From Acidobacteriota bacterium (GTDB lineage: Bacteria; Acidobacteriota; Vicinamibacteria; Vicinamibacterales; CAVVIG01), in NCBI GenBank assembly GCA_025358945.1, contig JANYHS010000099.1, positions 1 through 34,341 of the forward strand: a DNA stretch of 34,341 bases, given 5' to 3'. The notes beneath the pieces were generated by a model, which saw nothing but the letters and a program-made list of their open reading frames with translations, had not been told where the DNA came from and did not search any database. Numbering within the stretch: position 1 is the first letter of the stretch; each line of letters starts with the position of its first letter. Below are positions 7,098-34,060 of this stretch, one piece after another. Position numbers and translations under genes: made by a program.

Positions 7098-7231
7098 TCT
7101 GTAGACCTCGAGAAAAGACAGAGCGCTCAAATAGGACTGGGGGCTGGGGACTCGAGGCTGGAAAACATCCGCCCCAAGTCCCTAGCCCCAAGCCCCCGAT
7201 CCGTCGGGTAGCGTGGCGCGTGAGCGCCGAG

Positions 7232-7615
7232 CTACTTGATCTCGACCTTCGCGCCGACGTCCTCGAACTTCTTCTTGATCGCCGCGGCCTCGTCCTTGTT
7301 CACGCCTTCCTTGATCGGCTTGGGCGCGCCCTCGACGAGATCCTTGGCTTCCTTCAGGCCGAGCGCGGTGATTTCGCGAACCACCTTGATGACGTTGATC
7401 TTGTTGCTGCCGACTTCGGTCAGCGTGACGGTGAACTCGGTCTTCTCTTCGACGGCCGCGGCCGCAGCCGCGCCGCCGCCTCCGCCGCCCATCATCATCG
7501 GGGCCGCGGCGGACACGCCGAGCTCCGTTTCGAGCGTCTTCACGAGCTGCGAGAGCTCGAGCACGCTGATGCCCTTGATGTATTCAACCACCTGTGTCTG
7601 CGTCACGTCTGCCAT
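7232..7615 (-). CDS. rplL: 50S ribosomal protein L7/L12
   Basis: [53 protein letters not shown]; position in rplJL-rpoBC. Confidence 0.97.
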
Positions 7616-7657
7616 TGTTGTTCTCTCCTGAAAGTGCGAAAAAACCGGATTAATTTT

Positions 7658-8185
7658 TTAGGATTCCGAGCGCTTCTTTTCGGCGGCCGCCAGCACGTTC
7701 ATCAGGTCGCGCGGGACGGCGCTCAGCACCGTCACCAGCTGCACCATCGGCGCGTTCATAGTGCCGAGCAGTTTCGCGTACAGCTCTGGCTTGCCCGGCA
7801 ACGCGGCCAGCGCCGCCACATCAGCCGGCTTGACCGCGTGCCCCTGGACGACTGCCGCCTTGATCAGTAGCGTCGGCGTCGTCTTGCCGAACGCGGTCAG
7901 CGTCTTGGCGAGCGCGACCGGGTCGGCGCTGGTGTAGGCCACGGCCGTCGCGCCCTCGAAGAACTTCTCGAGAACCTCGAACGACGTGCCCTTGAGCGCG
8001 CGCCTGGCGATCGTGTTCTTCACGACCTTGTAGCCCGCCTTCGCCGTCCGCAGCTGACGCCGCAACTCGGTGACCTGCGGGACGTTCATGCCCTTGTAGT
8101 CGACCAGGATCGCGCTGTCGGATCCCTTGAAGGCCGCCTCGAGCTGCTGCAGCTCGATGGCTTTGTCCGCTTTCGTGACCGCCAT
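7658..8185 (-). CDS. rplJ: 50S ribosomal protein L10
   Basis: ORF product and synteny; AILVDYKGMNVPQVTELRRQLR. Confidence 0.96.
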   Translation of the reverse strand: MAVTKADKAIELQQLEAAFKGSDSAILVDYKGMNVPQVTELRRQLRTAKAGYKVVKNTIARRALKGTSFEVLEKFFEGATAVAYTSADPVALAKTLTAFGKTTPTLLIKAAVVQGHAVKPADVAALAALPGKPELYAKLLGTMNAPMVQLVTVLSAVPRDLMNVLAAAEKKRSES

Positions 8186-8892
8186 TAGTGTTTCACCACC
8201 ACGTCAATGTTCGTCGTGTCGATGCGGACGCCAGGTCCCATCGTCGACGACAGCGTGACGCTCTTGAGATACTTGCCCTTGGCCGCGGCCGGCTTCGCCT
8301 TCACGATGCTCTCGACCAGCGCGAGGGCGTTGGCCACCAGCGCATCGGCCGCAAACGACAACTTGCCGACCGGCGCGTGGATGATGCCCGTCTTGTCGAC
8401 GCGGAACTCCACCTTGCCGGCTTTGATTTCGCGAACCGCTTTTGCGATATCGACGGTGACGGTGCCGGTCTTCGGGTTCGGCATCAGGCCGCGCGGGCCG
8501 AGCACCTTGCCGAGCTTGCCGACCGCGCGCATCATGTCGGGCGTCGCGACGACCGCGTCGAAATCCATGAAGCCGCCCTGGATCTTGTCGACCAGTTCCT
8601 CGCCGCCGACCACGTCAGCGCCCGCCTCGGTGGCTTCCTTCTGCTTCTCGCCGCCCGCGATCACCAGTACGCGCTTGCTCCTGCCCAGCCCGTGCGGCAG
8701 GACGACGGTGCCGCGCACCATCTGGTCGGCGTGCTTCGGATCGACACCGAGCCGCAGCGACAGGTCAACCGTCTCGTCGAACTTCGCGTATTTCACCTTC
8801 TGCACGAGCGGGATCGCTTCTTCGATCGTGTAGACACGATCGACCTTGATCTGCGCGCTGGCAGCGGCGAATTTCTTGCCGTGCTTTTTCAT
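8185..8892 (-). CDS. rplA: 50S ribosomal protein L1
   Basis: [34 protein letters not shown]...[15 protein letters not shown]; stop overlaps rplJ start (TAATG). Confidence 0.97.
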
Positions 8893-8939
8893 GAATGCTC
8901 CTGTGGTGCTAACGCGTTCCGCAGAACGCTCCCACGCTT

Positions 8940-8965
8940 TGTAAATTCACAATTGTGAATTTACA
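8940..8965. repeat. 26-bp perfect AT-rich palindrome TGTAAATTCACAATTGTGAATTTACA in the rplK-rplA spacer
   Basis: Read directly; the two 13-nt halves are exact reverse complements. Confidence 0.95.
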
Positions 8966-8979
8966 GGTTACAAGCGGCG

Positions 8980-9405
8980 CTACCCGACGACGTCCAGCCC
9001 CATGGAACGCGCCGTTCCAGCGACTGTCTTGATGGCCGACGCCAGAGAGTCCGTGTTGAGGTCGGGCATCTTCAGCTTGGCGATCTCTTCGACCTGCTTG
9101 GCCGTGACCGTGCCGACCTTGTTCTTGTTCGGTTCCGCCGAGCCCTTCGCGATGTTCGCCGCGCGCTTCAGCAGAATCGGCGCCGGCGGTGTCTTCGTAA
9201 TGAACGTGTAGGACCGATCCGCATAGATGGTGACGACGACGGGAATGATGAGCCCTTCGTCCTTCGCCGTCTTCGCGTTGAAGTTCTTGCAGAAGTCCAT
9301 GATGTTCACGCCCTGCGGGCCGAGCGCCGTGCCCACGGGCGGAGCCGGCGTCGCCTTGCCGGCCGCAATCTGGAGCTTCACCATCGCCTGAACTTTTTTC
9401 GCCAT
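8980..9405 (-). CDS. rplK: 50S ribosomal protein L11
   Basis: [39 protein letters not shown]. Confidence 0.97.
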
Positions 9406-9407
9406 GA

Positions 9408-9950
9408 CTAAATCTTTTCAACCTGCAGAAAATCGAGTTCCACGGGCGTGGAGCGGCCAAAAATCGTGACCATCACCTTCAACGTGTTCTTATCGAGGTT
9501 GACCTCGTCGACCACGCCGTTGAAGCTGGTGAACGGCCCTTCGTTGATCCGCACCTGCTCGCCCTTCTCGAACATGTACTTCGGCTTCGGTTTTTCCGCC
9601 GCCGTCTTCACCTGGGTCAGAATCTGTTCGACTTCGTCCTTGCTGAGCGGCGTCGGCTTGGCGCCGGCGCCGACGAAACCGGTGACCTTCGGCGTGTTCT
9701 TCACCACGTGCCACGCGTTGTCGGACATGTTCATCTCGACAAGGATGTAGCCCGGGAAAAACCGCTTCGAGGTCACGACTTTCTTGCCGCCGCGCATCTC
9801 GACCACGTCCTCGGTCGGAATCAGGACTTCGCCGATATCACTCTGCAGCCCGTACGCGACGACGCGTTCGGTCAGTGATTCGGCCACCTTCTTCTCGAAG
9901 CCCGAGTAGGTGTGGACGATGTACCAGTTCTTCGTCGCGACGTCCGTCAT
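9408..9950 (-). CDS. nusG: Transcription termination/antitermination protein NusG
   Basis: [30 protein letters not shown]...[12 protein letters not shown] motif [24 protein letters not shown]; start shortened from the 10250 ORF because of ATGA overlap with secE. Confidence 0.95.
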
Positions 9951-10204
9951 GCCGCACCAAACTTGCGCAGGATCCACTGGAACAACGCCAGCAGCACCGA
10001 ATCGAGCGCGAACAAATACAGCCCGAAGAACACCGACGTCGCAATGACGACGACCGTGGTGGCGTAGACTTCCTTCTGCGACGGCCACGTGACGCGCTTC
10101 AGCTCGTTGCGCACTTCGCTGAGAAACAGGCGCGCGCGCTCGAACCGGCCCCCGGCCGCGTCTTTCACGTTGTCGAGCGTCGTCGGCGACGTATTCACTG
10201 CCAT
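9947..10204 (-). CDS. secE: Preprotein translocase subunit SecE
   Basis: [45 protein letters not shown]; upstream of nusG. Confidence 0.95.
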
Positions 10205-10220
10205 AGATACCCCGAAGGAC

Positions 10221-10296
10221 TGGCAGGCCAGGAGGGAATCGAACCCCCAACCCCCGGTTTTGGAGACCGGTGCTCTGCCAATTGAGCTACTGGCCT
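10221..10296 (-). tRNA. tRNA-Trp (anticodon CCA), 3' CCA encoded
   Basis: AGGCCAGTAGCTCAATTGGCAGAGCACCGGTCTCCAAAACCGGGGGTTGGGGGTTCGATTCCCTCCTGGCCTGCCA folds as a cloverleaf. Confidence 0.95.
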
Positions 10297-10316
10297 AAAG
10301 ACTGCGATCTCCAGAA

Positions 10317-10466
10317 CTACTTCGACTCTTTGTGAGACGTGTGCTTCCGGCAGAACCGGCAGAACTTGCTCATCTCGAGCCGCTCGGTCGTCTTCTTCTT
10401 GTTCTTCGTCGTGCTGTAATTGCGCCGCTTACATTCGATGCACGCGAGCGCGATGATGTCTCTCAT
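10317..10466 (-). CDS. rpmG: 50S ribosomal protein L33 (four-Cys, zinc-type)
   Basis: Minus-frame translation [49 protein letters not shown]; below the ORF-track size cutoff. Confidence 0.93.
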
Positions 10467-10478
10467 GACTGCCTTCTT

Positions 10479-10553
10479 GGAATTGGTAATCTGGTAATTG
10501 GGTAATCTGGTAATTCGATTACCCGGTTACCCAATTTCCCCGTTACCAGATTC

Positions 10554-10554
<1 letters not shown>
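10479..10554. repeat. About 76-bp imperfect palindrome of iterated GGTAATCTGGTAATT words between tuf and rpmG
   Basis: GGAATTGGTAATCTGGTAATTGGGTAATCTGGTAAT-TCG-ATTACCCGGTTACCCAATTTCCCCGTTACCAGATTCC; arms largely complementary. Confidence 0.9.
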
Positions 10555-11753
<1,199 letters not shown>

Positions 11754-11779
11754 GTCCGTGATCCTCGCGCTGCGTGTGA

Positions 11780-11855
11780 TGGAGCCGATGTCCAGAATCG
11801 AACTGGAGACCTCGTCCTTACCAAGGACGCGCTCTGCCAACTGAGCTACATCGGC
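11780..11855 (-). tRNA. tRNA-Thr (anticodon GGT), CCA encoded
   Basis: GCCGATGTAGCTCAGTTGGCAGAGCGCGTCCTTGGTAAGGACGAGGTCTCCAGTTCGATTCTGGACATCGGCTCCA. Confidence 0.95.
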
Positions 11856-11931
11856 GATCTCGGTCCTGCGTGCTCAGTGCCTGATTCTCAGTCGGTGGTG
11901 CCTGATCCCGTGATTCTGCGTCCCTGATTTC

Positions 11932-12006
11932 TGGAGCGGGAGACGGGGATCGAACCCGCGACCAACAGCTTGGAAGGCTGTGACTCTACCACTGAGTTAC
12001 TCCCGC
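11932..12006 (-). tRNA. tRNA-Gly (anticodon TCC), CCA encoded
   Basis: GCGGGAGTAACTCAGTGGTAGAGTCACAGCCTTCCAAGCTGTTGGTCGCGGGTTCGATCCCCGTCTCCCGCTCCA. Confidence 0.95.
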
Positions 12007-12045
12007 CTCGTCTCGCGTCCCGTGAGTCCTTTTTCTTCTTCATAA

Positions 12046-12132
12046 TGGTGGCGAGGGAAGGACTCGAACCTTCGAAGCCGCTAGGGCGACAGATTTACAG
12101 TCTGCTGCGTTTGACCGCTTCGCTACCTCGCC
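12046..12132 (-). tRNA. tRNA-Tyr (anticodon GTA), long variable arm, CCA encoded
   Basis: GGCGAGGTAGCGAAGCGGTCAAACGCAGCAGACTGTAAATCTGTCGCCCTAGCGGCTTCGAAGGTTCGAGTCCTTCCCTCGCCACCA. Confidence 0.94.
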
Positions 12133-12196
12133 AGCTAGCTGTGTGTTGGAAAACGAATGTTTCGGCTCGTCCCTGCGACCGGGGCTTCGTCGACGG

Positions 12197-12270
12197 AGCT
12201 GGCGAAGGGATTCGAACCCCCGACCTGCTGATTACAAATCAGCTGCTCTACCAGACTGAGCTACGCCAGC
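12197..12270 (-). tRNA. tRNA-Thr (anticodon TGT), CCA not encoded (reads CCG)
   Basis: GCTGGCGTAGCTCAGTCTGGTAGAGCAGCTGATTTGTAATCAGCAGGTCGGGGGTTCGAATCCCTTCGCCAGCT then CCG. Confidence 0.94.
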
Positions 12271-12285
12271 CAAGACAAAAGGTGA

Positions 12286-12314
12286 ACTTTAGCACGTCCC
12301 GTGCCACCCTGCAA
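12286..12314 (-). promoter_or_regulatory. Sigma70-like promoter for the tRNA/tuf cluster: TTGCAG-17 nt-TAAAGT
   Basis: Minus strand CTTGCAGGGTGGCACGGGACGTGCTAAAGTTCACC; optimal 17-nt spacing, about 15 nt upstream of the first tRNA. Confidence 0.7.
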
Positions 12315-12391
12315 GCGCCTGCCGGGTCGATCGAGGGACGGTCGTTGGACCCCATGGCCCCCCTGAGGGATGCGACAACCTCCCATTGTAC

Positions 12392-13114
12392 TCATTTCTT
12401 GTTCCGCTGCCGTACGGCCTCGAACAGGGCGATCCCAGTGGCCACCGACACGTTCAAACTTTGAACGTGGCCGCCCATCGGGATGGACACCAGCCAGTCG
12501 CACCGCTCCCGCACCAGCCGCCGCAACCCCGTCCCCTCCGCCCCGACGATAATCGCCGTCGGCAGCGTCATGTCCACTTCGTCGTACCGCTTCGGCGCAT
12601 CCCCGTCCAGGCCGACCGTCCAGACGCCCGAATCCTTCAGGATGTCGATCGCGCGCGCGATGTTCACCACCTCGGCGATCTTCACGTGCGCCACCGCGCC
12701 CGCCGACGCCTTTGCCGCCGCACCGTCGAGCCGCGCCGCATGACGCGACTGCCGCACAACGCCGTCGCCGCCCGCCGCGTCCACCGTCCGCAGGATCGCC
12801 CCGACGTTGTGCGGATCCTCGATGCTGTCGAGCACCACGAGGAGCGGCGCCGCCTTCGCCCCGATCACCAGGTCCTCGACGCTGTACGATCCCGCCTCTT
12901 CGACGTTGCCAATGACGCCCTGATGCTTGTGCCGCGCGCCACCGGCGAGACGGTCGAGCTCGTCGACGCTCACGCGATGCACCGGCACACCCTGCGCCTC
13001 CGCCAGCTGCACCACCTTCGTCAAACGATCGTCGGCGCGCGGCGAGACGCGAATCGACGTCGCGCGCTTCGCGCGAATCGCTTCGAGGACGGGGTTAATG
13101 CCGTAGATCAACAT
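12392..13114 (-). CDS. rlmB: 23S rRNA (guanosine-2'-O-)-methyltransferase RlmB / SpoU-TrmH family
   Basis: LIYGINPVLEAIRA...LDSIEDPHNVGAILRTVDAAG...IIVGAEGTGLRRLVRERCDWLVSIPMGGHVQSLNVSVATGIALFE. Confidence 0.93.
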   Translation of the reverse strand: MLIYGINPVLEAIRAKRATSIRVSPRADDRLTKVVQLAEAQGVPVHRVSVDELDRLAGGARHKHQGVIGNVEEAGSYSVEDLVIGAKAAPLLVVLDSIEDPHNVGAILRTVDAAGGDGVVRQSRHAARLDGAAAKASAGAVAHVKIAEVVNIARAIDILKDSGVWTVGLDGDAPKRYDEVDMTLPTAIIVGAEGTGLRRLVRERCDWLVSIPMGGHVQSLNVSVATGIALFEAVRQRNKK

Positions 13115-13131
13115 GGTTCGTGAAAGGCAAC

Positions 13132-13200
13132 CACGAAGACACGAAGGTCACGAAAGACGCACGCTTCTTCGCGCGTCTTCGTGGATTTCGTGACTTCGTG
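13132..13200. repeat. Iterated-word inverted repeat (CACGAAGACACGAAGGTCACGAA...) between gltX and rlmB
   Basis: CACGAAGACACGAAGGTCACGAAAGACGCACGC-TTCTTC-GCGCGTCTTCGTGGATTTCGTGACTTCGTG. Confidence 0.88.
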
Positions 13201-13201
13201 A

Positions 13202-14707
13202 TTAGGGCAGCCTTTCCTCCAGAGCGCGCGCGAATGCGGCCGCGCGCTCGCGGTTGCCGATAATCTTCGGGATGCCGGCCGACGCCGGCAGCTCCGCGCC
13301 GAGATCGATCGCCGGCACGGCTAGGTCGAGCTCCGGTCCTTCAGCGCGGCCGGTCAGCACGACTCGGATCGGATGAAAAAGGGCCTTCCCTTTTTGACTC
13401 GTGCGGGCCTTCACACGGTTCGCGACGTCGCGGAATTTTTCGCGATCGAGCCGCGGCGCCGACGCCAATTCCTCGGCCAGCGCGACGACCACCGACCGCG
13501 CCTCACCGCCGCGCATCTCGCTGAGGAGCCGCGCGTCGGCCAGCGCCGCGTCCGCGTCGTAGTCGAAGAGCAGCGCCAGCCGCGCCGGCACCTGACTGAG
13601 CCGGTCCACGGACGCACCCATGGCCATCGCCGTCGCCAGAAAACCAAGCCCGCGATCGTCAGGCGCCATCCGCACGCCGGCGTCATTGAAGTACGGCAGC
13701 GACAGCTCCGCGAGCCGCGCCGGGTCCGCGATCTTCAGGTAGTGCCGATTCGCCCACGCCAGCTTCTCTTCGTCGAACACGCCCGCGCTGTGCCCGACCT
13801 TCTCGAGCGAGAAACGGTGCGCGAGCTCCTCGACCGGCAGCAGCTCGTCTCCGCCACCCGGCGACCAGCCGATCAGCGCCAGATAGTTCACCAGCGCCTC
13901 CGGCAGATATCCCTTCGACCGGAACTCCGCCACGGACGTCGCGCCATGTCGCTTCGACAACGGGCTGTGATCCGGTCCCATCACCAGCGAGAGATGCGCA
14001 AACGTGGGCGGCGCGAAACCGAGCGCCTCGTACAACAGAATCTGCCGCGGGGTGTTCGAGATGTGATCCTCGCCGCGCACCACATGCGTCACTGCCATCA
14101 ACGCATCATCGACGACCACCGCGAAGTTGTACGCGGGCGTGCCGTCGGCACGAACGATGATCGGATCGCCGATGACATCGGTGTGAAAACGGACATCCCC
14201 ACGCACCGCGTCGGTGAACACCACGTCGCGCTGTTCAGGAATGCGAAAACGGATCGCCGGGCGCTCGCCGGCCGTGATGCGCTCTGAGGCCTGCTCGCGC
14301 GAGAGCCGGCGGCAGGTGCCGGCGTACCGCGCCGGGCGTCCGGCAGCCAGCGCCTCCTGACGGTCGACGTCGAGCTGCGCCATCGAACAGAAACAGTAGT
14401 ACGCCGCGTCGGCGCCGAGCAATTCCGCGGCGTACGACTGATACAGGTGAAGCCGCTCGGACTGGCGATACGGACCGTGCGCGCCGCCGATATCCGGCCC
14501 CTCGTCCCAGTCGAGGCCCAGCCATCGCAGATCGCGGACGATCGCGGCTTCAGACTCCTTCGTCGATCGCTCGACATCGGTGTCCTCGATGCGGAGAATC
14601 AACGTGCCGCCTGAGCCGCGCGCCAGCAGCCAGTTGAACAACGCAGTGCGCGCGTTGCCGACGTGCAGCTGCCCGGTGGGGCTTGGCGCAAATCTGACTC
14701 GCATCAT
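13202..14707 (-). CDS. gltX: Glutamyl-tRNA synthetase
   Basis: VRFAPSPTGQLHVGNARTALFNWLLAR...PLSKRHGATSVAEFRSKGYLPEALVNYLALIGWSPG. Confidence 0.97.
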   Translation of the reverse strand: MMRVRFAPSPTGQLHVGNARTALFNWLLARGSGGTLILRIEDTDVERSTKESEAAIVRDLRWLGLDWDEGPDIGGAHGPYRQSERLHLYQSYAAELLGADAAYYCFCSMAQLDVDRQEALAAGRPARYAGTCRRLSREQASERITAGERPAIRFRIPEQRDVVFTDAVRGDVRFHTDVIGDPIIVRADGTPAYNFAVVVDDALMAVTHVVRGEDHISNTPRQILLYEALGFAPPTFAHLSLVMGPDHSPLSKRHGATSVAEFRSKGYLPEALVNYLALIGWSPGGGDELLPVEELAHRFSLEKVGHSAGVFDEEKLAWANRHYLKIADPARLAELSLPYFNDAGVRMAPDDRGLGFLATAMAMGASVDRLSQVPARLALLFDYDADAALADARLLSEMRGGEARSVVVALAEELASAPRLDREKFRDVANRVKARTSQKGKALFHPIRVVLTGRAEGPELDLAVPAIDLGAELPASAGIPKIIGNRERAAAFARALEERLP

Positions 14708-16005: not shown

Positions 16006-16012
16006 CTCTCAG

Positions 16013-16064
16013 GTCTCAACTCTCAGGTCTCAGGTCTTCAACTCTCAGCTCCCGGCCTCCAGCT
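16013..16064. repeat. Tandem degenerate CTCAGGTCT/CTCAACT repeats between plsC and ispDF
   Basis: CTCTCAGGTCTCAACTCTCAGGTCTCAGGTCTTCAACTCTCAGCTCCCGG. Confidence 0.85.
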
Positions 16065-16084
16065 GAAACGCTATCCGTCTTATG

Positions 16085-16837: not shown

Positions 16838-16894
16838 TGTCCGCTCATTGTAGATGAGCGACCGCTCTTCTGGGGGGAGCAGAATGCGCCACTC

Positions 16895-18844: not shown

Positions 18845-18852
18845 TCGAACCC

Positions 18853-19541: not shown

Positions 19542-19569
19542 CGTCTGCGTGATTATACGGGCGAGACTG

Positions 19570-22838: not shown

Positions 22839-22877
22839 TGGGGCAACCCCCGGTTTTATGAATAGGCCGCTGCTAGT

Positions 22878-22910
22878 AAGAATAAAGAAAGGGGCTGCGG
22901 CAAGAGCCCC
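22878..22910 (-). terminator. Rho-independent terminator downstream of radA
   Basis: Minus strand GGGGCT-CTTGCCGC-AGCCCC-TTTCTTTATTCTT. Confidence 0.7.
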
Positions 22911-22976
22911 GCCGGAAACATATCACCAATTGTCACGATGCGCGCAGCCCGCGTCGCCAGGGCTTCGGCGCGCAAG

Positions 22977-24368: not shown

Positions 24369-24370
24369 AA

Positions 24371-24446
24371 GGTCGCGTGGGTCGCGTGGGTCGCGTGGGT
24401 CGCGTGGGTCACCGACTTGACCTACCAGACCTACTGGACCTACGTG
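24371..24446. repeat. Tandem 9-mer GGTCGCGTG (4 copies) plus inverted GACCTAC words between radA and alr
   Basis: GGTCGCGTGGGTCGCGTGGGTCGCGTGGGTCGCGTGGGTCACCGACTTGACCTACCAGACCTACTGGACCTACGTGG. Confidence 0.92.
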
Positions 24447-25639: not shown

Positions 25640-25664
25640 CGGTTTTCAGTTTATTCTGTCGCGC

Positions 25665-26357
25665 ATGGCTGAAACCGTCGAATTCCGCAGCAACGGCAAC
25701 ACTGCATCGGGATACCTCGTCACGCCGGCGTCCGGATCGGGTCCGGGCATCCTCGTGATCCAGGAATGGTGGGGTCTGGATTCAGGCATCAAGGAAATGA
25801 CCGATCGCCTTGGCGCCGCCGGCTTCGTCGCCCTCGCGCCGGATCTCTATCACGGCGAACTCGCCGCTCACGACGAAATGGACAAGGCCGCGCACCTGAT
25901 GAATGCCCTGCCGGCCGATCGTGCAGCGCGCGACACGAGCGGCGCCATCGACTACCTGGCGAGCCTGCCCTCCGTCACGCACCACGGCATCGGCGTGGTC
26001 GGGTTCTGCATGGGCGGGATGCTGTCGTTCCTCATCGCCGCCAATCGCGGCGACAAGGTGAAGGCGCTGGTTCCCTTCTACGGATTTCCGCAGGGCGCGA
26101 TGGAGCCGGACTGGTCGAAGCTGACCGCGTCGATCAGCGGTCACATGGCGGAGACCGACCAGTTCTTTCCACCGGAAGCCGCCAAGGCGCTCGAGACGAA
26201 ACTGCGCGCGATGGGCAAGACGGTGACGCTGACCGTTCACGCCGGCACAGGGCACGCGTTCATGGGCCCGCACAACGCGCTGGGCACGTTCAACGCGGCA
26301 GTCGCCGCGAAGATCTGGCCGGAGGCCGTGGCGTTTCTGAAAAAGACGCTGAGCTGA
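25665..26357 (+). CDS. Dienelactone hydrolase family protein
   Basis: MAETVEFRSNGNTASGYLVTPASGSGPGILVIQEWWGL...VVGFCMGGMLSFLIAA...HAGTGHAFMGPHN; start trimmed from the 25590 ORF. Confidence 0.93.
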   Translation: MAETVEFRSNGNTASGYLVTPASGSGPGILVIQEWWGLDSGIKEMTDRLGAAGFVALAPDLYHGELAAHDEMDKAAHLMNALPADRAARDTSGAIDYLASLPSVTHHGIGVVGFCMGGMLSFLIAANRGDKVKALVPFYGFPQGAMEPDWSKLTASISGHMAETDQFFPPEAAKALETKLRAMGKTVTLTVHAGTGHAFMGPHNALGTFNAAVAAKIWPEAVAFLKKTLS

Positions 26358-26368
26358 CCAGTTCTCGG

Positions 26369-26692
26369 TCAGCCACCAACTCGGACAAGTTGGCCGGCCG
26401 TGACGCTCGACAACGCTTGGAGGATCTGAGGAACGAACGGGCGCAGATCCTTCAGGCGATTGGTTCGCGCGATGACAACCACCAGACCAACGCCGGCGGA
26501 TTGCAGATTCTGTTGGAACTCGATGTTCTGATCGACAGTCAGCAGCACCTCGAACCGCTCTGCCAGCATCAGCTCGAGCAGTTCACCGTTGCGCTTCGAC
26601 GACCAGCCCATGTCGACGACGTGTTGCACGTCGTGGCCCACAAGATCGGGCTTCAGCGTGCGCGGGACGCACTCATCGAGCAACAGCCGCAT
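26369..26692 (-). CDS. DUF5615-family PIN-like toxin
   Basis: MRLLLDECVPRTLKPDLVGHDVQHVVDMGW...LLTVDQNIEFQQNL. Confidence 0.88.
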   Translation of the reverse strand: MRLLLDECVPRTLKPDLVGHDVQHVVDMGWSSKRNGELLELMLAERFEVLLTVDQNIEFQQNLQSAGVGLVVVIARTNRLKDLRPFVPQILQALSSVTAGQLVRVGG

Positions 26693-26903
26693 GGGACTCG
26701 GTCATCTCGCGCGCGAGTTCGAGTGCCGCGACCGCCTGCTCGCGGGTGACGGAGGGGAAGTCGTTCAGAAAGTCGTCGAGGGGGTCGCCGGCTTCGAGAT
26801 AATCGAAGAGGGTCTTGGCTGGCACTCGGGTTCCGACAAACACGGGAGTGCCGCCGAGAATCTCGGGGTCGACGTGCACGACAGCGGGCTTGGCCATGGT
26901 CAA
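26673..26903 (-). CDS. DUF433-family antitoxin
   Basis: VHVDPEILGGTPVFVGTRVPAKTLFDYLEAGDPLDDFLNDFPSVTREQAVAALELARE; overlaps the toxin gene by 20 nt. Confidence 0.9.
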   Translation of the reverse strand: MTMAKPAVVHVDPEILGGTPVFVGTRVPAKTLFDYLEAGDPLDDFLNDFPSVTREQAVAALELAREMTESHAAVAR

Positions 26904-27085
26904 TTCTGTCTGTTTGCGAGTATACCGCCGAGACAGACTCCTGACGGCGCACCGCCAAGATCCTTGCGGTGTATTGCGTGCAATCGAACGACGTCAGAGC
27001 GAAGCTGCGCTCAGTCGTCGCGGAGTACGACAAACGCGATTTGAGCGACCAACCAGCTCAACACAGCCATCCCAGCTTCCGCCGC

Positions 27086-28435
27086 CTATCCGCCGCCCGA
27101 GAGATTCTCGAATCTCGTGAACTCGCGGATGAACGCCAGCTTCACGACACCGGTGGGGCCGTTGCGCTGCTTCGCGATGATTAATTCCGCCACGCCCTGC
27201 GAGTCGGCCGGCGGCTGCCCCTTGTCGAGGTACATCTCCTCGCGATAGATGAACGCGACGACGTCGGCGTCCTGCTCGAGTGCGCCGGACTCTCGGAGAT
27301 CGGAGAGCTGCGGACGATGGTCGGCTCGCGCTTCAGGGGCGCGGCTCAACTGCGAGAGCAGCACGATCGGGACGCGGAGTTCCTTCGCGAGTCCTTTCAA
27401 CGACCGCGAGATCGCGCCCAATTCCAGCGTGCGATTCTCGAACTTGCCGCGTCCCTGCATCAACTGCACGTAGTCGATGATCACCATGTGCAGGCCGTGC
27501 TCGGAGGCGAGCCGGCGGCACTTCGCGCGCATCTCGAGCACGCCGATCGACGGCGTGTCGTCGATGAAAATCTTTGCCTCGCTCAGCGTGCCGATCGCCT
27601 GCGACAGCCGGCCCCAGTCCTTCTCGCCAAGGAAGCCGCCGCGCAGGCGGTGCGCGTCGATGCGCGCCTCGCCGGTCAGCATGCGGAGAAACAGCTGTTC
27701 CTTCGACATTTCGAGGCTGAACACGCCAACCGTCATGTCCGTCTTGGTGCCGACGTGCTGCGCGATGTTCAGCACCAGACTGGTCTTCCCCATCGAGGGG
27801 CGCGCGGCGATGATCACGAGGTCCGACGGCTGCAGCCCCGACGTCATCTCGTCGAGATCGGTAAAGCCGGTCGGCACGCCGGTGACCAGCTCCTTGCGCG
27901 AATGCAGCTTCTCGATCGTATCGAGGCTGCCCTGCGCGAGGTCGCGCAGCGACACGAAGCCGTCGCGGATCTTGTCGTCGGCGATTGCGAAAATCGCGTG
28001 TTCGGCCTGATCGAGGATCAGGTCGGCTTCGTCTTCGCCCGCGTACGCCGTGGCGAGAATCTTGTTGGCGGAAAAAATGAGATGACGGAGTGTCGCCTTC
28101 TCCTTGATGATCTTGGCGTAGTGCTCGACGTTGGTGTGGCGTGGCACGCCGTCGATGAGGGCGGAGATGTAGGCCGGGCCGCCGACCTCGTCGAGGTCGC
28201 CCGAGCGCCCGAGTTCTTCCTTCAGCGTGACCAGATCGATCGCGTCGTTGCGCTCCGCCAGCTTGACCATCTTGTCGAAGATGCGCCGGTGCGCGTCGCG
28301 AAAGAAGTCGTTGGCGTCGATGACTTCGGCCGCCAGGTTGAACGCGTCGTTGTGGAGGAGAATCGCGCCCAGCACCGAGCGCTCGGCCTCGAGGTTGTGA
28401 GGAAGTGTGCGTTCGGCGACCGCAGTATCAGCCAT
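27086..28435 (-). CDS. dnaB: Replicative DNA helicase DnaB
   Basis: LPHNLEAERSVLGAILL...IIAARPSMGKTSLVLNIAQHV...VIIDYVQLMQG...LSQLSRAPEARADHRPQLSDLRESGALEQDADVV. Confidence 0.97.
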   Translation of the reverse strand: MADTAVAERTLPHNLEAERSVLGAILLHNDAFNLAAEVIDANDFFRDAHRRIFDKMVKLAERNDAIDLVTLKEELGRSGDLDEVGGPAYISALIDGVPRHTNVEHYAKIIKEKATLRHLIFSANKILATAYAGEDEADLILDQAEHAIFAIADDKIRDGFVSLRDLAQGSLDTIEKLHSRKELVTGVPTGFTDLDEMTSGLQPSDLVIIAARPSMGKTSLVLNIAQHVGTKTDMTVGVFSLEMSKEQLFLRMLTGEARIDAHRLRGGFLGEKDWGRLSQAIGTLSEAKIFIDDTPSIGVLEMRAKCRRLASEHGLHMVIIDYVQLMQGRGKFENRTLELGAISRSLKGLAKELRVPIVLLSQLSRAPEARADHRPQLSDLRESGALEQDADVVAFIYREEMYLDKGQPPADSQGVAELIIAKQRNGPTGVVKLAFIREFTRFENLSGGG

Positions 28436-28446
28436 TGGAACTTCGA

Positions 28447-28577
28447 AGTGAGAACACTGAGAACTCAGAACTGGGAAGTAGAACTATAAGCGTAAACAGG
28501 CGACCCCAAAAAGAAAACCCGGAACCAGGATTTCTCCCGGCTCCGAGTTCTGAGTTCTAACTTCTCAGTTCTAAGTT
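28447..28577. repeat. Inverted AGAACTCAGAACT word repeats flanking the rplI terminator
   Basis: Left GAGAACACTGAGAACTCAGAACTGGGAAGTAGAACT; right GAGTTCTGAGTTCTAACTTCTCAGTTCTAAGTTG. Confidence 0.85.
28506..28544 (-). terminator. Rho-independent terminator after rplI with GAAA tetraloop
   Basis: Minus strand GGAGCCGGGA-GAAA-TCCTGGTTCC-GGGTTTTCTTTTT; 10-bp stem with two G-U pairs. Confidence 0.75.
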
Positions 28578-28578
28578 G

Positions 28579-29031
28579 TTACGCCTTGGCCTCTGCCGTC
28601 ACCTTCACCTTCAACGTCACGGTGACGTCGCGGTGGAGCTTCACCGGTACTTCGAACTCGCCGAGCCGCTTGATCGGATCGTGGAGCTGGATGGTCCGGC
28701 GATCGATGTCGAAGCCCTTGGCGGCCAGCACTTCGGCGATGTCGGCGTTGGTGACCGAGCCGAACAGCGCGTCGGTCTCGCCGACCTTGCGCGAGATCTC
28801 GACCTCGACCACGGCCAGCCGATCGGCCACGGCCTGCGCGGCCTTCTGCTCCTCCGCTTCGTTCGCGTCGAACTTCACTTTCTCGCGCTCGATGACTTTC
28901 TTGTTGCCCTCTGTCGCCAGCAGGGCCATCTTGCGCGGCAGCAGATAGTTGCGCGCGTAACCGTCGGCGACTTTCACGAGGTCGCCGCGGCGTCCGAGGT
29001 TGTCGACGTGTTCTCGAAGAATAACTTCCAT
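28579..29031 (-). CDS. rplI: 50S ribosomal protein L9
   Basis: MEVILREHVDNLGRRGDLVKVADGYARNYLLPRKMALLAT. Confidence 0.97.
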   Translation of the reverse strand: MEVILREHVDNLGRRGDLVKVADGYARNYLLPRKMALLATEGNKKVIEREKVKFDANEAEEQKAAQAVADRLAVVEVEISRKVGETDALFGSVTNADIAEVLAAKGFDIDRRTIQLHDPIKRLGEFEVPVKLHRDVTVTLKVKVTAEAKA

Positions 29032-29040
29032 GGCGTGCCT

Positions 29041-29355
29041 CTACTCCGTGACGTAAGGAATCAGCGCGATCTGCCGGGCGCGCTTGATCGCCGTCTGCAG
29101 TTTGCGCTGGTGCTTCGCGCACGTGCCGGAAATGCGCCGCGGCAGAATCTTGCCGCGCTCGGGTACGAACGGCCCGATCAGCTTCACATCCTTGTAGTTG
29201 ATGTCGTCGATCTTGTCCGCGCAGAACTTGCAGACCTTGCGACGACGAAACAGCGTGCGGCGCTGTCCCTTTTCCTTGTCGCCGGCTTTCTTGTCGCCGG
29301 CGCGGCCGCGGCCGCCGCCACCGCCGCCCGATCGTCCCTGTCCAAATGGTGGCAT
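29041..29355 (-). CDS. rpsR: 30S ribosomal protein S18 with Gly/Lys-rich N-terminal extension
   Basis: [65 protein letters not shown]. Confidence 0.96.
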
Positions 29356-29358
29356 GGC

Positions 29359-29811
29359 TTAAACCTCTCCTACTTCAAATCGATCGTCGTCCTGATCGTC
29401 CGGCTCGCCGGCCGGACGGCCTTCACCCGGTTGCCGCTGCGGTGGGAGGCCACGCTTCACGCGCCGGCGCTCCGAGTTGGTCCGCCGCCGCGTCTGCACG
29501 GTGTCGACGACTTTCTTCGCTTCGTCCACGCGGACGATCATCTGCCGGATGACGATGTCCATCACCTTCAGCCGGCGATCCAGTTCCTTCATCAACTCGC
29601 CGCTGCCGTTGATCGTCTGGAGGACGTAGTAGCCCTCCTTGTGGCGGGCGATCTCATAGGCGAGACGCTTGCGTCCCCAGTTGTCGGTGCTGGCGATCGT
29701 CCCGCTCAACCGGGTGACCACTTCTTCGACCTTCGCCTGGAGTTCGGCGACCTGTTGTTCGGTCGTGTCCGGGGGGAGGATGTAGACGAGTTCGTACTGT
29801 CGATCTGACAT
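29359..29811 (-). CDS. rpsF: 30S ribosomal protein S6
   Basis: MSDRQYELVYILPPDTTEQQVAELQAKVEEVVTRLSG...NWGRKRLAYEIARHKEGYYVL; start trimmed from 29856. Confidence 0.95.
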   Translation of the reverse strand: MSDRQYELVYILPPDTTEQQVAELQAKVEEVVTRLSGTIASTDNWGRKRLAYEIARHKEGYYVLQTINGSGELMKELDRRLKVMDIVIRQMIVRVDEAKKVVDTVQTRRRTNSERRRVKRGLPPQRQPGEGRPAGEPDDQDDDRFEVGEV

Positions 29812-29907
29812 TGCTGCTCCTAAGGACGCTTCGCACCGCGAAGCGGCCACCAGCATGGTGGCAAGGGTGCCCTTCGACTTGCCGCGGATACTGCGGCTCG
29901 CTCAGAG

Positions 29908-30486
29908 CTATTCGGTTGTCGCCGGATCGCCGCCGTTGAATGCGTTCATCACCGCCTCGATCCCCGACGCGATGAACATCTCCGCCGCATCAGCCGCGCG
30001 CGCCGTCATGCGCGCGACCTCCGCACCTTCATCTTTCTCGAACCGCGAGAGCACGTGATCCGCAAGATTGCGCTGATCCCCGCCCCGCCCGACGCCGACC
30101 CGCACCCGCGAAAACTCGTCGCCGAGGTGCGCGATGATCGACTTCAACCCGTTGTGGCCGCCGGCCGATCCGCGGGTCCGCGCCCGCAGCCTGCCGAGCG
30201 GCAAATGAACTTCGTCGACCACGATCAGCAGGTCGGCGACGTCGATCTTGAAATATCGCGAGAGCTCGCCCACCGCCTGGCCGCTGAGGTTCATGAACGT
30301 CAGCGGCTTCACCAGCAGAACGGCTTCGTCCGCCCGCCGCCATTTCGCGACCAGCGCCTCCGCCGGCGCCGACTCGAAGCTCACTGACGCGCGGCGCGCC
30401 AGCTCGTCGACGACATCGAAGCCGACGTTGTGCCGTGTGCCCTTGTACTGCGGGCCCGGGTTGCCGAGCCCGACAATGGCCTTCAC
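29908..30486 (-). CDS. pth: Peptidyl-tRNA hydrolase
   Basis: MKAIVGLGNPGPQYKGTRHNVGFDVVDELARRA...KPLTFMNLSGQAVGE...DLLIVVDEVHLPLGRLRARTRGSAGGHNGLKSIIAHLG. Confidence 0.97.
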   Translation of the reverse strand: MKAIVGLGNPGPQYKGTRHNVGFDVVDELARRASVSFESAPAEALVAKWRRADEAVLLVKPLTFMNLSGQAVGELSRYFKIDVADLLIVVDEVHLPLGRLRARTRGSAGGHNGLKSIIAHLGDEFSRVRVGVGRGGDQRNLADHVLSRFEKDEGAEVARMTARAADAAEMFIASGIEAVMNAFNGGDPATTE

Positions 30487-30494
30487 CTCGCCCG

Positions 30495-31196
30495 TTACTT
30501 CTTCTTGTCGTCTTTCTTCTTGTCGTCCTTCTTGTCGCTGTCTTCCTCGTCCTTCTTGCCCTTCTTCAACACTTCGGGCTCGGCGGGCGTGGCGGTGGCA
30601 GCGGCAGCCGCGTCAGCCGGCGCCGCGACTTCCACGGCCTTCGGCATGATCACGTGAACGAGCATGAGGTCGAGATCGCTGACCGGCTTCCACTTCGCGT
30701 TGGTCGCGATGTCGCGCACGCGGATGCCCTGGTGCAGCATCAGTTCGGTCACGTCGACGTCGATGTGCTCGGGGATGTCGGCCGGCAGCACTTCGATGAC
30801 CACTTCGCGGCGGATGAACTCGAGGATGCCGCCCTGCTGCTTCACGCCCTTCGGCTCGCCGTGGACGATGACCGGGATCGTCACCTGGAGGAGCTTGTCC
30901 ATCGCGATGCGCAGGAAGTCGACGTGGAGAACCTCGTGGGTGATCGGGTCGAGCAGGAAATCCTTCACGAGAACGCGGTTGTCGCCGGCGCCCGCGAGCT
31001 TCAACGAGATCAGCGTGTTCTGCCCCGACTCCGAGTGCAGGATCTTCAGCAGATCTTTCGGCTTGACCGCGATCGCCGTCGCTTCCGTGCCGCCGCCGCC
31101 GTACAGCACGCCGGGGACGTGGCCGCCGCGGCGCGTACGCCGGGCTTCATTTTTTCCGAACGTGTCACGCGCCTGCGCTTCGAGTATCGCTTCCAT
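30495..31196 (-). CDS. rplY: 50S ribosomal protein L25/general stress protein Ctc with low-complexity Lys/Asp tail
   Basis: ILEAQARDTFGKNEARRTRRGGHVPGVLYGGG...VLHVDFLRIAMDKLLQVTIPVIVHGEPKGVKQQGGILEF; tail EEDSDKKDDKKKDDKKK. Confidence 0.94.
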   Translation of the reverse strand: MEAILEAQARDTFGKNEARRTRRGGHVPGVLYGGGGTEATAIAVKPKDLLKILHSESGQNTLISLKLAGAGDNRVLVKDFLLDPITHEVLHVDFLRIAMDKLLQVTIPVIVHGEPKGVKQQGGILEFIRREVVIEVLPADIPEHIDVDVTELMLHQGIRVRDIATNAKWKPVSDLDLMLVHVIMPKAVEVAAPADAAAAATATPAEPEVLKKGKKDEEDSDKKDDKKKDDKKK

Positions 31197-31211
31197 AAAT
31201 TCCTCTAATTC

Positions 31212-32177
31212 CTACACAAACAACGAGGACACCGATGTCTCCTCGTGAATCGACTTAATCGCTTGTCCGAGCAGCCGCGCCACCGACAGCACGACGACCT
31301 TGCTGCACGCCGCACCCGCCGCCGACAGCGGAATCGTGTTGGTCACGATCAACTTGTCGATCGGCGACTTCTCGATCCGCTCGATGGCCGGCCCCGACAA
31401 CACGCCATGCACCGCGCAGGCGATGATTCGCGCCGCGCCGTTGGCCTTGAGCGCCGCAGCGCCCTTGGTGATCGTCCCCGCGGTGTCGATGATGTCGTCC
31501 TGCAGGATGCAGGTCCGCCCCTCGACATCGCCGATCACGTTCATCACTTCCGCCGTCCCGTCGTCGCTGCGCCGCTTGTCGATGACGGCGAGCTCGGCGT
31601 CCAGCCGCTTCGCGTAGGCGCGCGCGCGTTCGGCGCCGCCCGCGTCCGGCGAGACCATCGTCAGCTTCGGATAATCGAGACGCGCGAGGTAGTCGATGAT
31701 CACCGGCGCGGCGAACAGATGGTCGACCGGAATGTCAAAGAACCCCTGGATCTGCGCCTTGTGCAGGTCCATCGTCAGCACGCGGTTGGTGCCCGCGGCG
31801 CTGAGCACGTTGGCCACCAGCTTGGCCGAAATCGGCACCCGCGGCTTATCCTTGCGATCCTGACGTGCGTAACCGTAATACGGCAGCACTGCGGTGATGC
31901 GCGACGCCGACGAGCGGCGGAACGCATCGATCATGATCATCAACTCCATCAGGTGCTCGTCGACCGGATTGCTGGTCGGCTGCACGATGAAGACGTCGGT
32001 CCCACGGATGTTCTCGTCGATCTGGAACGAGACCTCCGAGTCCGGAAACCGGCGCAAACGCGCCTGCCCAAGCCCCACGCCGAGAAACGCCGCAATTTCA
32101 CGCGACAGTTCCTGGTGCGCGCTGCCCGAGAACACTTTCAGTTCGCCAAACCCGGTCGCCATGAAGGGATCACCCAT
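31212..32177 (-). CDS. prs: Ribose-phosphate pyrophosphokinase (start could be ATG at 32162)
   Basis: LKVFSGSAHQELSREIAAFLGV...GYARQDRKDKPRVPISAKLVANVL...DLHKAQIQGFFDIPVDHL...VSPDAGGAERARAYAKRL. Confidence 0.97.
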   Translation of the reverse strand: MGDPFMATGFGELKVFSGSAHQELSREIAAFLGVGLGQARLRRFPDSEVSFQIDENIRGTDVFIVQPTSNPVDEHLMELMIMIDAFRRSSASRITAVLPYYGYARQDRKDKPRVPISAKLVANVLSAAGTNRVLTMDLHKAQIQGFFDIPVDHLFAAPVIIDYLARLDYPKLTMVSPDAGGAERARAYAKRLDAELAVIDKRRSDDGTAEVMNVIGDVEGRTCILQDDIIDTAGTITKGAAALKANGAARIIACAVHGVLSGPAIERIEKSPIDKLIVTNTIPLSAAGAACSKVVVLSVARLLGQAIKSIHEETSVSSLFV

Positions 32178-32201
32178 CGGACTACAACAGCCCCCGCGAG
32201 G

Positions 32202-32276
32202 TGGCTGGGGCGGAAGGATTCGAACCTTCGAATACGGGATCCAAAGACCCGCGCCTTACCACTTGGCGACGCCCCA
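32202..32276 (-). tRNA. tRNA-Gln (anticodon TTG), CCA encoded
   Basis: TGGGGCGTCGCCAAGTGGTAAGGCGCGGGTCTTTGGATCCCGTATTCGAAGGTTCGAATCCTTCCGCCCCAGCCA. Confidence 0.95.
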
Positions 32277-32370
32277 ATAAAAAGTTCCCGCGCCTGTCTC
32301 TGAATGAAAGTGCTGACTTCAGGAGTGGCCTAACGCACGCGGCGCAAAAGGGTAAGTTTATCCGATGGAC

Positions 32371-33237
32371 TCAGGTTGCGGCAAGGGTCTGATAGCGTCG
32401 GCGGTTAAGTGTCCTGGTGAGCAGTGTCCTTCGGGAAGCCGACCCCAGACCGTTTGCGGCTCGCGCCGCGGCTAGACTCTGCGAAAACAGGCCGAAAACA
32501 GCTGACCCGCTGCCAGACATCGCCGCCTGAGACGCCCCGTTCCGCCGGAGTGCAGAAATGATACGACCCACGGCCGGGTGCTGTTTCACGACCGGCGCCT
32601 CCAGATCGTTAACCAGTTCACCGCGGGGGACGATCCCTGGGTCGGCGCGACGTGGCGCGGCCCGCTCAGGACTGCTGTCAAACCATCCGAATGCGTCCTT
32701 CGTACTGACCCCGAAATCCGGGAGGACCAGGACGACCCATGCCGCCGGCCCATCGATCAACGGGAACAGCAGGTCCCCGCGATCGAGGCCGAGCACCGTT
32801 CCGCCTTCGAGGAAGTACGGGACGTCGGCGCCGAGCGCCTTCGCAGATTCGCGCACGCGCGCGTCACTGACGCGCCACCGACGGGCGAGCGCGCGCAGCG
32901 TCGCCGCCGCATCGCTGCTGCCGCCGCCCAGCCCTGCCTGCATCGGAATCCGTTTCCGCAAATCGATGGCCACGTCACGCGGCGCGCCGCGGCGCCCGGC
33001 CGCGCGCCACATCCGCGCCGCCGCCAGCGCAATCAGATTCGTCCCGTCGACAGGGCACGCCGGATCGTCACATGTCAGCCGGAACGGACCGCGGATCGAG
33101 CGAATTGTCAGCGTGTCGTGCAGCGCGATCGACTGAAAGATCGTGCGCAGTTGGTGATATCCGTCGGCGCGCGTGCTCAGCACACGCAGCGACAGGTTAA
33201 TTTTTGCGAACGCCTGGACGCGCATGGCGAAGCTCAT
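32371..33237 (-). CDS. ispE: 4-diphosphocytidyl-2-C-methyl-D-erythritol kinase
   Basis: MRVQAFAKINLSLRVLSTRADGYHQLRTIFQSIALHDTL...KRIPMQAGLGGGSSDAAATLRAL; start at 33237 or 33225 rather than 33327. Confidence 0.94.
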   Translation of the reverse strand: MSFAMRVQAFAKINLSLRVLSTRADGYHQLRTIFQSIALHDTLTIRSIRGPFRLTCDDPACPVDGTNLIALAAARMWRAAGRRGAPRDVAIDLRKRIPMQAGLGGGSSDAAATLRALARRWRVSDARVRESAKALGADVPYFLEGGTVLGLDRGDLLFPLIDGPAAWVVLVLPDFGVSTKDAFGWFDSSPERAAPRRADPGIVPRGELVNDLEAPVVKQHPAVGRIISALRRNGASQAAMSGSGSAVFGLFSQSLAAARAANGLGSASRRTLLTRTLNRRRYQTLAAT

Positions 33238-34012
33238 CGAGGGTGATGGATTGGGCCGTCCGCGGCACCTGCACGCGGAAGACCTCGGCGTCGAGCGCAA
33301 TGTTGGTCTCGACCTGTGTGAGCGCAAGCGTCAGATCGAACGACGCGCTGCCGTCGCGCGGCACACTCGTGATCCGCAGCGTCCGCGGCAGCCCGTTCAG
33401 TTGATCGCGATAGTCCACGCGCCACGCGCGGTGGACGATGGCCGCCAGCTGCCACGCGGCGGCGTCTCGCCGCAGGTAGATCGCGTCGCCGTCCGCGTCT
33501 GTGATCGTCCGCCAGTCAGCGCCGAGCGCGCGCCCCTCCGGCTGGGACACGGCCGGCGTACAGCCGGTGAGCACCGCATGGAGATCGCTCGCGCTCAACG
33601 GCACGCCGGCCACCGCGTCGAGTACGTCAGCGGGACGGCCGTGCTCGAGGACGCGCTCGTCTCGCGGCAGGAACAGCGTGGCATCGTCGTTAGTGGCCAC
33701 AAAGATGAAAAAGGGCGCGCCGAACGGTGCGACCGCCTCGAGCCGAGCCGACGCCGGAGCTTCGACGCCCGCGGACAGACGCACGCGAAAACGCTGCCCC
33801 CCGACGTTGCCGCTGGCCGCAACCTCCGCCGTCAGCGTGCGAATGCCGCGGCAGACGCTCGTCGCCTGCGCAAACGCGTCCGCGGCATCTGTGGCTGGCG
33901 CGCCGGGGCCGGCCGGCAACTTCATCAGCGGGGCGCCGCAGGACGTGACCGCCAATGCGAGTAAGACCTCGCCACCACAGAGGGCACGGAGGACACAGGG
34001 GAAGAATCCCAT
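33197..34012 (-). CDS. Putative outer-membrane lipoprotein (LolB/DUF4292-like)
   Basis: MGFFPCVLRALCGGEVLLALAVTSCGAP (lipobox LAVTSC); SARLEAVAPFGAPFFIFVATNDDATLFLPRDERVLEHG; located next to ispE-prs; start trimmed from 34162. Confidence 0.75.
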   Translation of the reverse strand: MGFFPCVLRALCGGEVLLALAVTSCGAPLMKLPAGPGAPATDAADAFAQATSVCRGIRTLTAEVAASGNVGGQRFRVRLSAGVEAPASARLEAVAPFGAPFFIFVATNDDATLFLPRDERVLEHGRPADVLDAVAGVPLSASDLHAVLTGCTPAVSQPEGRALGADWRTITDADGDAIYLRRDAAAWQLAAIVHRAWRVDYRDQLNGLPRTLRITSVPRDGSASFDLTLALTQVETNIALDAEVFRVQVPRTAQSITLDELRHARPGVRKN

Positions 34013-34060
34013 ACCAAAAGGATTTGATCTCCGCGTCCTCGCTGTCTCCCGTGGTGGAGA
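33972..34060. repeat. Iterated-word inverted repeat (CACCACAGAGGGCACGGAGGACACAGG...) at the TPR/lipoprotein junction
   Basis: CACCACAGAGGGCACGGAGGACACAGGGGAAGAATCC ... GGATTTGATCTCCGCGTCCTCGCTGTCTCCCGTGGTGGAG. Confidence 0.85.

What the first reader, a model, noticed from the sequence alone, without database searches (positions are those of the whole stretch)
7136..34060. Window-wide series of iterated-word palindromic elements with about 10 unrelated vocabularies
Spacers between essential genes repeatedly contain short elements (about 25-130 bp). Each is built by iterating one 7-12 nt word with slight variation, often followed by its inverted copy, so that it forms a long imperfect hairpin. 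Each site uses a different word: GGGGCTGGGGACT (7136-7199), AATTGTGAATT (8940-8965), GGTAATCTGGTAATT (10479-10554), GTGCCTGATTC (11862-11931), CACGAAGACACGAAGGT (13132-13200), CTCAGGTCTCAACT (16013-16064), GGTCGCGTG/GTAGGTC (24371-24446), AGAACTCAGAACT (28447-28577), CACAGAGGGCACGGAGGACACAGG (33972-34060). One vocabulary per locus with the same architecture argues for a shared generating process, such as RNA/DNA hairpin-templated synthesis, strand-switching replication or a RAYT/reverse-transcriptase-like agent. Classical REP/ERIC families instead repeat one consensus. The mechanism is inference; the repeats are read directly.
Basis: partly seen in the sequence, partly recalled or inferred. 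Interest (0 to 1): 0.82.

Follow-up and report, generated by a model that had tools for sequence, protein, structure and literature searches.

The report
Drifting repeat-word hairpins between genes
Many gaps between genes in this Acidobacteriota genome and its relatives are filled with short DNA hairpins built by repeating one 7-9 letter word, and relatives keep the hairpin in the same gap while the word itself drifts or is replaced, which offers a way to ask what creates and maintains such repeats.

Summary
The elements are real: eight of nine beat dinucleotide shuffles on repetition or palindromy (13132 only marginally); 11862-11931 does not. They are a corner of a genome-wide feature. Iterated 7-, 8- or 9-nt words, usually purine-rich 5' arm / pyrimidine-rich 3' arm, occupy 60/292 sampled spacers here and 17-36% in two relatives, against about 1/200 in shuffled spacers. 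'One vocabulary per locus' fails genome-wide: most window words recur at several loci. Across about 20 genomes of the family, orthologous spacers keep the element (83/156 spacers of at least 25 bp) while the word changes: vocabulary is shared in 64% of same-genus pairs, 13% of different-genus pairs at one site, 1% at different sites. Period and word at a site stay closer than chance, so much of the change is drift of an inherited array, with some replacement and nesting. Reverse transcriptase (RVT_1) and Y1/RAYT transposase are each undetected in near-complete carriers. No G-U excess over A-C mismatches and no T-tracts argue against mRNA hairpins and terminators. Most likely: STRR/heptamer-type DNA repeats homogenised by slippage and template switching, sometimes copied between loci. 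The kind is known (Nostoc, Xanthomonas, Geobacter); the word turnover at conserved sites seems undescribed.

The parts
7136..7199 (.). rplL-rpoB spacer: 7-nt word GGGGCTN/GGGACTN, hairpin
   Evidence: p 0.003 direct, 0.001 inverted; other weak copies in the genome; same site carries period-7 or 8 elements in 9 of 11 family spacers of at least 25 bp, with other words
8940..8965 (.). rplA-rplK spacer: TGTAAATTCACAA palindrome, readable as four 7-nt units (TGTAAAT TCACAAT TGTGAAT TTACA)
   Evidence: perfect 13+13 inverted repeat; the same site in G013 holds an AATTTAC 7-mer hairpin
10479..10554 (.). spacer downstream of tuf: 8-nt word GGTAATYN, hairpin
   Evidence: p 0.001/0.001; arms of 31 nt, 81% complementary; word at about five other places
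   Evidence: p 0.22 direct, 0.99 inverted
13132..13200 (.). spacer next to gltX: CACGAAGN 8-9-nt word, hairpin
   Evidence: marginal alone (p 0.054/0.03); same word at the orthologous site in G018, G019, G015 and G016
16013..16064 (.). spacer next to ispDF: 7-nt word TCTCAGG/TCTCAAC, direct repeats only
   Evidence: p 0.002 direct, 0.063 inverted
24371..24446 (.). alr-radA spacer: 9-nt word GGTCNNGTN, hairpin
   Evidence: p 0.001/0.001; about a dozen loci in the genome sample; orthologous site holds other 8-9-nt words in other genera
28447..28577 (.). dnaB-rplI spacer: 7-nt word AGAACTN, two arms bracketing a GC-rich CTCGGA...TCCGAG core
   Evidence: p 0.001 direct, 17-nt arms 94% complementary; same word in same-genus G001, related words in other genera
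33972..34060 (.). CACAGAGGN/CACGGAGGN 9-nt word hairpin, three units per arm, ends CCACCAC...GTGGTGG
   Evidence: p 0.009/0.002; same architecture at several G021 loci

Best explanation
These are intergenic iterated-word hairpins: DNA-level, self-homogenising repeats of the short-tandem (STRR/heptamer) kind. Shown: they fill spacers, are inherited at a site, keep their period, and drift in word across the units and both arms; vocabularies also recur between loci of one genome; RVT_1 and Y1_Tnp proteins are undetected in some carriers; there is no sign of selection on RNA pairing. Inferred: replication slippage within an arm and template switching between the inverted arms (quasipalindrome conversion) homogenise the word. 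Also inferred: arrays are occasionally copied into other spacers, through shared words, by an unidentified recombination or template-switch route, and they persist where they are tolerated rather than because of a dedicated function.
For: Occupancy far above shuffles; period-7 arrays 6-31 per 100 kb in the family versus 0.15 in 1.3 Mb of mostly Bacilli. Same-site words are closer than under within-genome site permutation (3.41 vs 3.87, p 0.001), and the period is conserved at sites (0.60 vs 0.45, p 0.0005). Word sharing: same genus 0.64, other genera 0.13, unrelated sites 0.01, other sites of the same genome 0.06. Words recur within genomes (0.10-0.15 of locus pairs vs 0.02-0.03 null); unit order is shared between loci in G021 and G008 (mean rank 0.65). 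Both arms carry the same word but are not unit-by-unit copies. G-U and A-C mismatches are equal, 94 vs 97; no T-tract after the 3' arm, 0/43. Template switching between imperfect inverted repeats homogenises arms in yeast and is a known E. coli process (PMC8604942, PMC7202029).
Against: Slippage and template switching do not by themselves explain why the 5' arm is purine-rich in 85 of 98 hairpins, nor how a word reaches many loci. Unit-order sharing is weak in the window's own genome (mean rank 0.53). Unrelated words at one site in the same genus (alr-radA, G000 vs G001) require replacement rather than drift. No event was observed directly; all comparisons are between species.
Confidence: 0.5

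Rival explanations
1. Non-autonomous mobile elements: each vocabulary is a small family of hairpins moved by an unidentified transposase (REPIN/MITE-like) that inserts into spacers and nests in older copies.
For: Words at many loci of one genome and absent in others; nested elements in G018; shared unit order in G021/G008; constant CACGGAGGN three-units-per-arm architecture.
Against: Loops differ between copies and whole-element identity is mostly 72-85%, whereas the RAYT-type GTAG REPs of the same genome match at 88-95% with the loop; no constant ends across vocabularies; a site keeps its period and a related word across genera; Y1_Tnp undetected in carrier G013.
Confidence: 0.22
2. Selected RNA hairpins at gene ends (processing sites, mRNA stabilisers or attenuators), kept by selection on structure while sequence drifts.
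For: Site-specific retention across genera; avoidance of divergent spacers in G000 and G021; location between co-oriented genes, close to the stop codon.
Against: No excess of G-U over A-C mismatches in 93 sense-oriented elements; no T-tracts; same polarity in convergent and divergent spacers; one-armed arrays are common; no avoidance of divergent spacers in G008.
Confidence: 0.15
3. Selected DNA features: binding arrays for an abundant DNA- or RNA-binding protein, or G-quadruplex formers.
For: IHF/HU binding was proposed for heptamer families in Geobacter metallireducens (PMC2700814) and G-quadruplexes for GGGNATC repeats (PMC4692102).
Against: Many words have no G-runs (ATTTCAG, AATTAGG, AGAACTN, GGTAATYN); one genome holds many unrelated words and each site changes word, which a single binding specificity would not allow.
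Confidence: 0.08
4. Templated synthesis by a reverse transcriptase or RAYT.
For: The window's own genome has one RVT_1 protein and three Y1_Tnp proteins.
Against: RVT_1 undetected in element-bearing G021, G023, G009, G019; Y1_Tnp undetected in G013 and G002, which carry elements.
Confidence: 0.04

Closest known systems
Heptameric G-rich repeats GGGAATC (Xanthomonas) and GGGGA(C/T)T (Nostoc), PMC4692102
   Same: 7-nt units, single or inverted pairs, intergenic, same strand rule (G-rich on sense after a stop, on antisense before a start), positions mostly kept between related species, function unknown.
   Different: One word per lineage there; here many words of period 7, 8 and 9 per genome, many without G-runs, and the word at a site changes between genera.
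STRR heptanucleotides of Calothrix/cyanobacteria (cited in PMC4692102) and TAACTGA repeats of Beggiatoaceae (PMC4679880)
   Same: Intergenic tandem 7-mers at many loci; patchy distribution; mechanism unknown.
   Different: TAACTGA sets are almost all direct repeats just upstream of starts; here hairpins with a polarity rule and site-wise word drift.
Multicopy heptanucleotide families of Geobacter metallireducens, PMC2700814
   Same: Several different heptamer families in one genome (GGACCGG; MTYCTGA drawn as two facing halves).
   Different: Families described in one genome only; no orthologous-site comparison; proposed as regulator-binding sites.
REP/REPIN with RAYT (PMC3116915; GTAG-tagged REPs PMC3733652)
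   Same: Intergenic hairpins, dispersed families.
   Different: REPs keep one consensus including the loop and are tied to a RAYT; here the word varies, loops differ and a RAYT is not required. Real GTAG REPs coexist in these genomes.

Membership tests
STRR / heptameric tandem-repeat class | tandem units of about 7 nt, dispersed, mainly intergenic | tested here: met
   Period 7 dominates intergenic arrays: 31/61, 40/62 and 19/35; periods 8 and 9 also occur, wider than the class
STRR / heptameric tandem-repeat class | strand and position rule of Rehm et al. (G-rich sense after stop, antisense before start) | tested here: met
   42:14 near stop vs 3:27 near start, p 4e-9 (rule from PMC4692102)
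REP/REPIN | a RAYT (Y1_Tnp) in the genome | tested here: not met
   undetected in G013 and G002, which carry elements; 18 of 27 genomes have one
REP/REPIN | one conserved consensus per family, including the loop | tested here: not met
   loops unrelated, 72-85% identity confined mostly to arms, vs 88-95% for REPs in the same genome
MITE | constant terminal inverted repeats and target-site duplication | tested here: inconclusive
   no constant ends across vocabularies; no strain-level empty sites available
Diversity-generating or other retroelement | reverse transcriptase present | tested here: not met
   RVT_1 undetected in G021, G023, G009, G019
Intrinsic transcription terminators | T-tract directly after the hairpin | tested here: not met
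   0 of 43 with TTTT within 10 nt
Known structured RNA (Rfam) | match to a curated family | tested here: not met
   only six tRNAs hit in the window

The most novel reading that the evidence does not exclude
A dedicated, unidentified enzyme writes purine-rich 7-9-nt arrays at 3' ends and folds back to make the second arm (telomerase-like, with changeable word templates), rewriting the same spacers with new vocabularies as lineages diverge. The constant purine-first polarity and the shared dictionaries within a genome are compatible with it.
Probability: 0.06. Interest if true: 0.88.

Novelty: new variant of a known kind. Interest (0 to 1): 0.57.

Why it matters
Heptamer-type repeats have been reported in distant bacteria for decades without a mechanism or function. 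This bacterial family gives some 20 genomes with the same gene order, where the same gaps carry the same kind of hairpin in successive stages of word change. That turns an anecdotal curiosity into a system in which inheritance, homogenisation, copying and replacement can be separated by comparison. It also shows that short-repeat vocabularies are poor markers of common origin and that such spacers should not be read as regulators by default.

Tried and rejected
RT and RAYT as generator: undetected in some carriers. RNA-level hairpin selection and intrinsic terminators: no signature. Arms as direct copies of each other: own arms no closer than arms of other loci with the same word in the tight families. 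A universal 'core plus N' unit: significant in G000, marginal in G008, absent in G021. Unit-order test, first version, was inflated by arrays spanning both arms; replaced by the filtered version. The genome-contig scan with GltX returned mostly distant taxa; it placed the genome in Acidobacteriota and gave outgroups only. The gene caller failed on most outgroup loci, so the outgroup control uses array density instead. Strict three-unit patterns across the phylum are lower bounds; the GGGGACTN pattern has an 8-nt step, gives 0 in the window's genome and hits only one other Acidobacteriota family. A literature search for the literal words found no relevant paper.

Full report
What was checked. 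The nine sequences are in the window as described. Scored against dinucleotide shuffles, seven are clearly non-random in repetition, palindromy or both, 13132-13200 is marginal on its own and 11862-11931 is not supported. Among the strongest inverted repeats of the window are the listed elements at 10479, 28447 and 8940. No Rfam family other than tRNA matches the window.

Genome context. The window is one whole contig of a 3.9-Mb, 372-contig, 97%-complete genome. It holds rpoB-rplL-rplJ-rplA-rplK, tRNAs and tuf, gltX-ispDF, radA-alr and dnaB-rplI (the ribosomal and tuf names rest on gene order and general knowledge). The closest named records are Acidobacteriota MAGs, at 64% GltX identity.

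A genome-wide feature. I sampled 738 kb of this genome and 360 and 420 kb of two family members (G021, G008). Spacers with significant periodicity or inverted repeat number 60/292, 59/166 and 28/165; of 200 shuffled spacers, 0 passed for periodicity and 1 for palindromy. Period 7 dominates, then 9 and 8. Period-7 arrays occur at 6-31 per 100 kb in this family and at 0.15 per 100 kb in 1.3 Mb of mostly Bacilli.

Vocabularies are dispersed families. In each genome a word recurs at several loci: GGTCNNGTN, AGAACTN, GGGGCTN and GGTAATYN in G000; GTGGCTG, ATTTCAG, ATTGCGG and GAGGATNT in G021; ATTGCTG in G008. The fraction of locus pairs sharing a 7-mer with at most one mismatch is 0.10, 0.15 and 0.10, against 0.02-0.03 for composition-shuffled words, and 0.04-0.05 between genomes. 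So 'one vocabulary per locus' is an effect of seeing only one contig.

Orthologous spacers. I fetched the syntenic block from the other family genomes and extracted spacers between the same genes. Of 156 spacers of at least 25 bp (sites with enough genomes), 83 are occupied, with real differences between sites (chi-square p 0.002; for example 9/11 at rplL-rpoB but 2/15 at 22839-22976). At rplL-rpoB the words are GGGGCTN/GGGACTN, GTGGCTG, ATTGCGG, GGGATTCG and others. At alr-radA they are GGTCNNGTR, GGTAATCN, GGTCATCT, AATTGGTG, GGGGTGATG and others. Word sharing above threshold is 0.64 for the same site in the same genus, 0.13 for the same site in different genera, 0.06 for different sites of one genome and 0.01 for different sites in different genera. 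Period is more concordant at a site than by chance (0.60 vs 0.45, p 0.0005). Words at a site are closer than when sites are permuted within genomes (p 0.001). Inheritance with drift of the array is therefore supported statistically. Replacement also happens: G000 and G001 differ completely at alr-radA, and G017 and G018 differ at several sites, with nested elements in G018.

Architecture. The 5' arm is purine-rich in 85 of 98 periodic hairpins and G>C in 86 of 97, in tandem, convergent and divergent spacers alike (39:9, 6:1, 4:1). Non-periodic hairpins show only a weak bias (27:14, p 0.06). Single arrays obey the same rule: nearer a stop they are G-rich on the sense strand (42 vs 14), nearer a start C-rich (27 vs 3), p 4e-9. 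The same strand rule was reported for GGGAATC/GGGGAYT repeats in Xanthomonas and Nostoc (PMC4692102). The two arms of a hairpin share the word but are no closer in unit detail than arms of other loci in tight families. Unit order is shared between loci in G021 and G008, weakly in G000, which points to some copying of arrays.

What it is not. RVT_1 is undetected in G021, G023, G009 and G019 (91-100% complete), and Y1_Tnp is undetected in G013 (96%) and G002 (97%), all of which carry elements. Absence rests on HMM searches of draft genomes. Classical GTAG REPs exist in the same genomes and behave differently, matching at 88-95% including the loop. There is no T-tract after the 3' arm in 43 cases. 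In 93 sense-oriented hairpins G-U and A-C mismatches are equally common (94 vs 97), so there is no trace of selection on RNA pairing; a modest effect is not excluded.

Mechanism. The best account is DNA-level homogenisation. Slippage changes unit number; template switching between inverted arms spreads variants from arm to arm (known for yeast inverted repeats and E. coli quasipalindromes: PMC8604942, PMC7202029, abstracts); occasional copying seeds other spacers. The first two steps are inferred from pattern; the copying agent is unknown; the purine-first polarity is unexplained. Elements avoid divergent spacers in two of three genomes, consistent with tolerance rather than targeting, or with function.

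Novelty. Tandem-heptamer elements, inverted pairs, the strand rule and several families per genome are each on record (PMC4692102, PMC2700814, PMC4679880). New to my knowledge are the density and vocabulary diversity in this Acidobacteriota family, and the demonstration that a site keeps its hairpin and period while its word drifts or is swapped between genera.

Limits. The gene caller was home-made, all genomes are drafts, there is one genome per species, and the pairs used in several tests are not independent. Word calls by consensus are noisy for short arrays.

Noticed in passing
L067:1269-1308, L045:8553-8595 (own genome); L215, L218, L221 (G021): GTAG-tagged REP-type palindromes coexist with the iterated-word hairpins and match at 88-95% between loci in G021. 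In L045 a REP-like arm (GTAGCGCACGACTT) is itself iterated three times.
   Followed up: partly
spacers of L192 (G017), L196 (G003), L202 (G015), L204 (G014) and L197/L230-L249 (G008): A different dispersed element with GGGGGTGGGGCCCC in a hairpin and, upstream, AGTCGTCGCAAGCAATGCCGAGCGGCG-like sequence, repeatedly placed just before start codons.
   Followed up: no
L206 (G018), rplI-rpsR and dnaB-rplI spacers: Nested elements: outer ATTTCAG arms around a CGCAGAG hairpin that same-genus G017 has alone; CACGGAGG hairpin inside AGAAGTCTG-like arms.
   Followed up: partly
L079 (G000 C247:7016-7639): The only RVT_1 protein of the window's genome has an in-frame TAG in its 779-aa frame.
   Followed up: no
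genomes G028, G044, G084, G134, G160 (family f11): Another Acidobacteriota family carries GGGGACTN arrays of period 8, 50 strict pattern hits in G028.
   Followed up: no
L330-L347: Eighteen contigs of the viral collection carry an exact CACGGAGGN x3 array; not checked whether they are truly viral.
   Followed up: no
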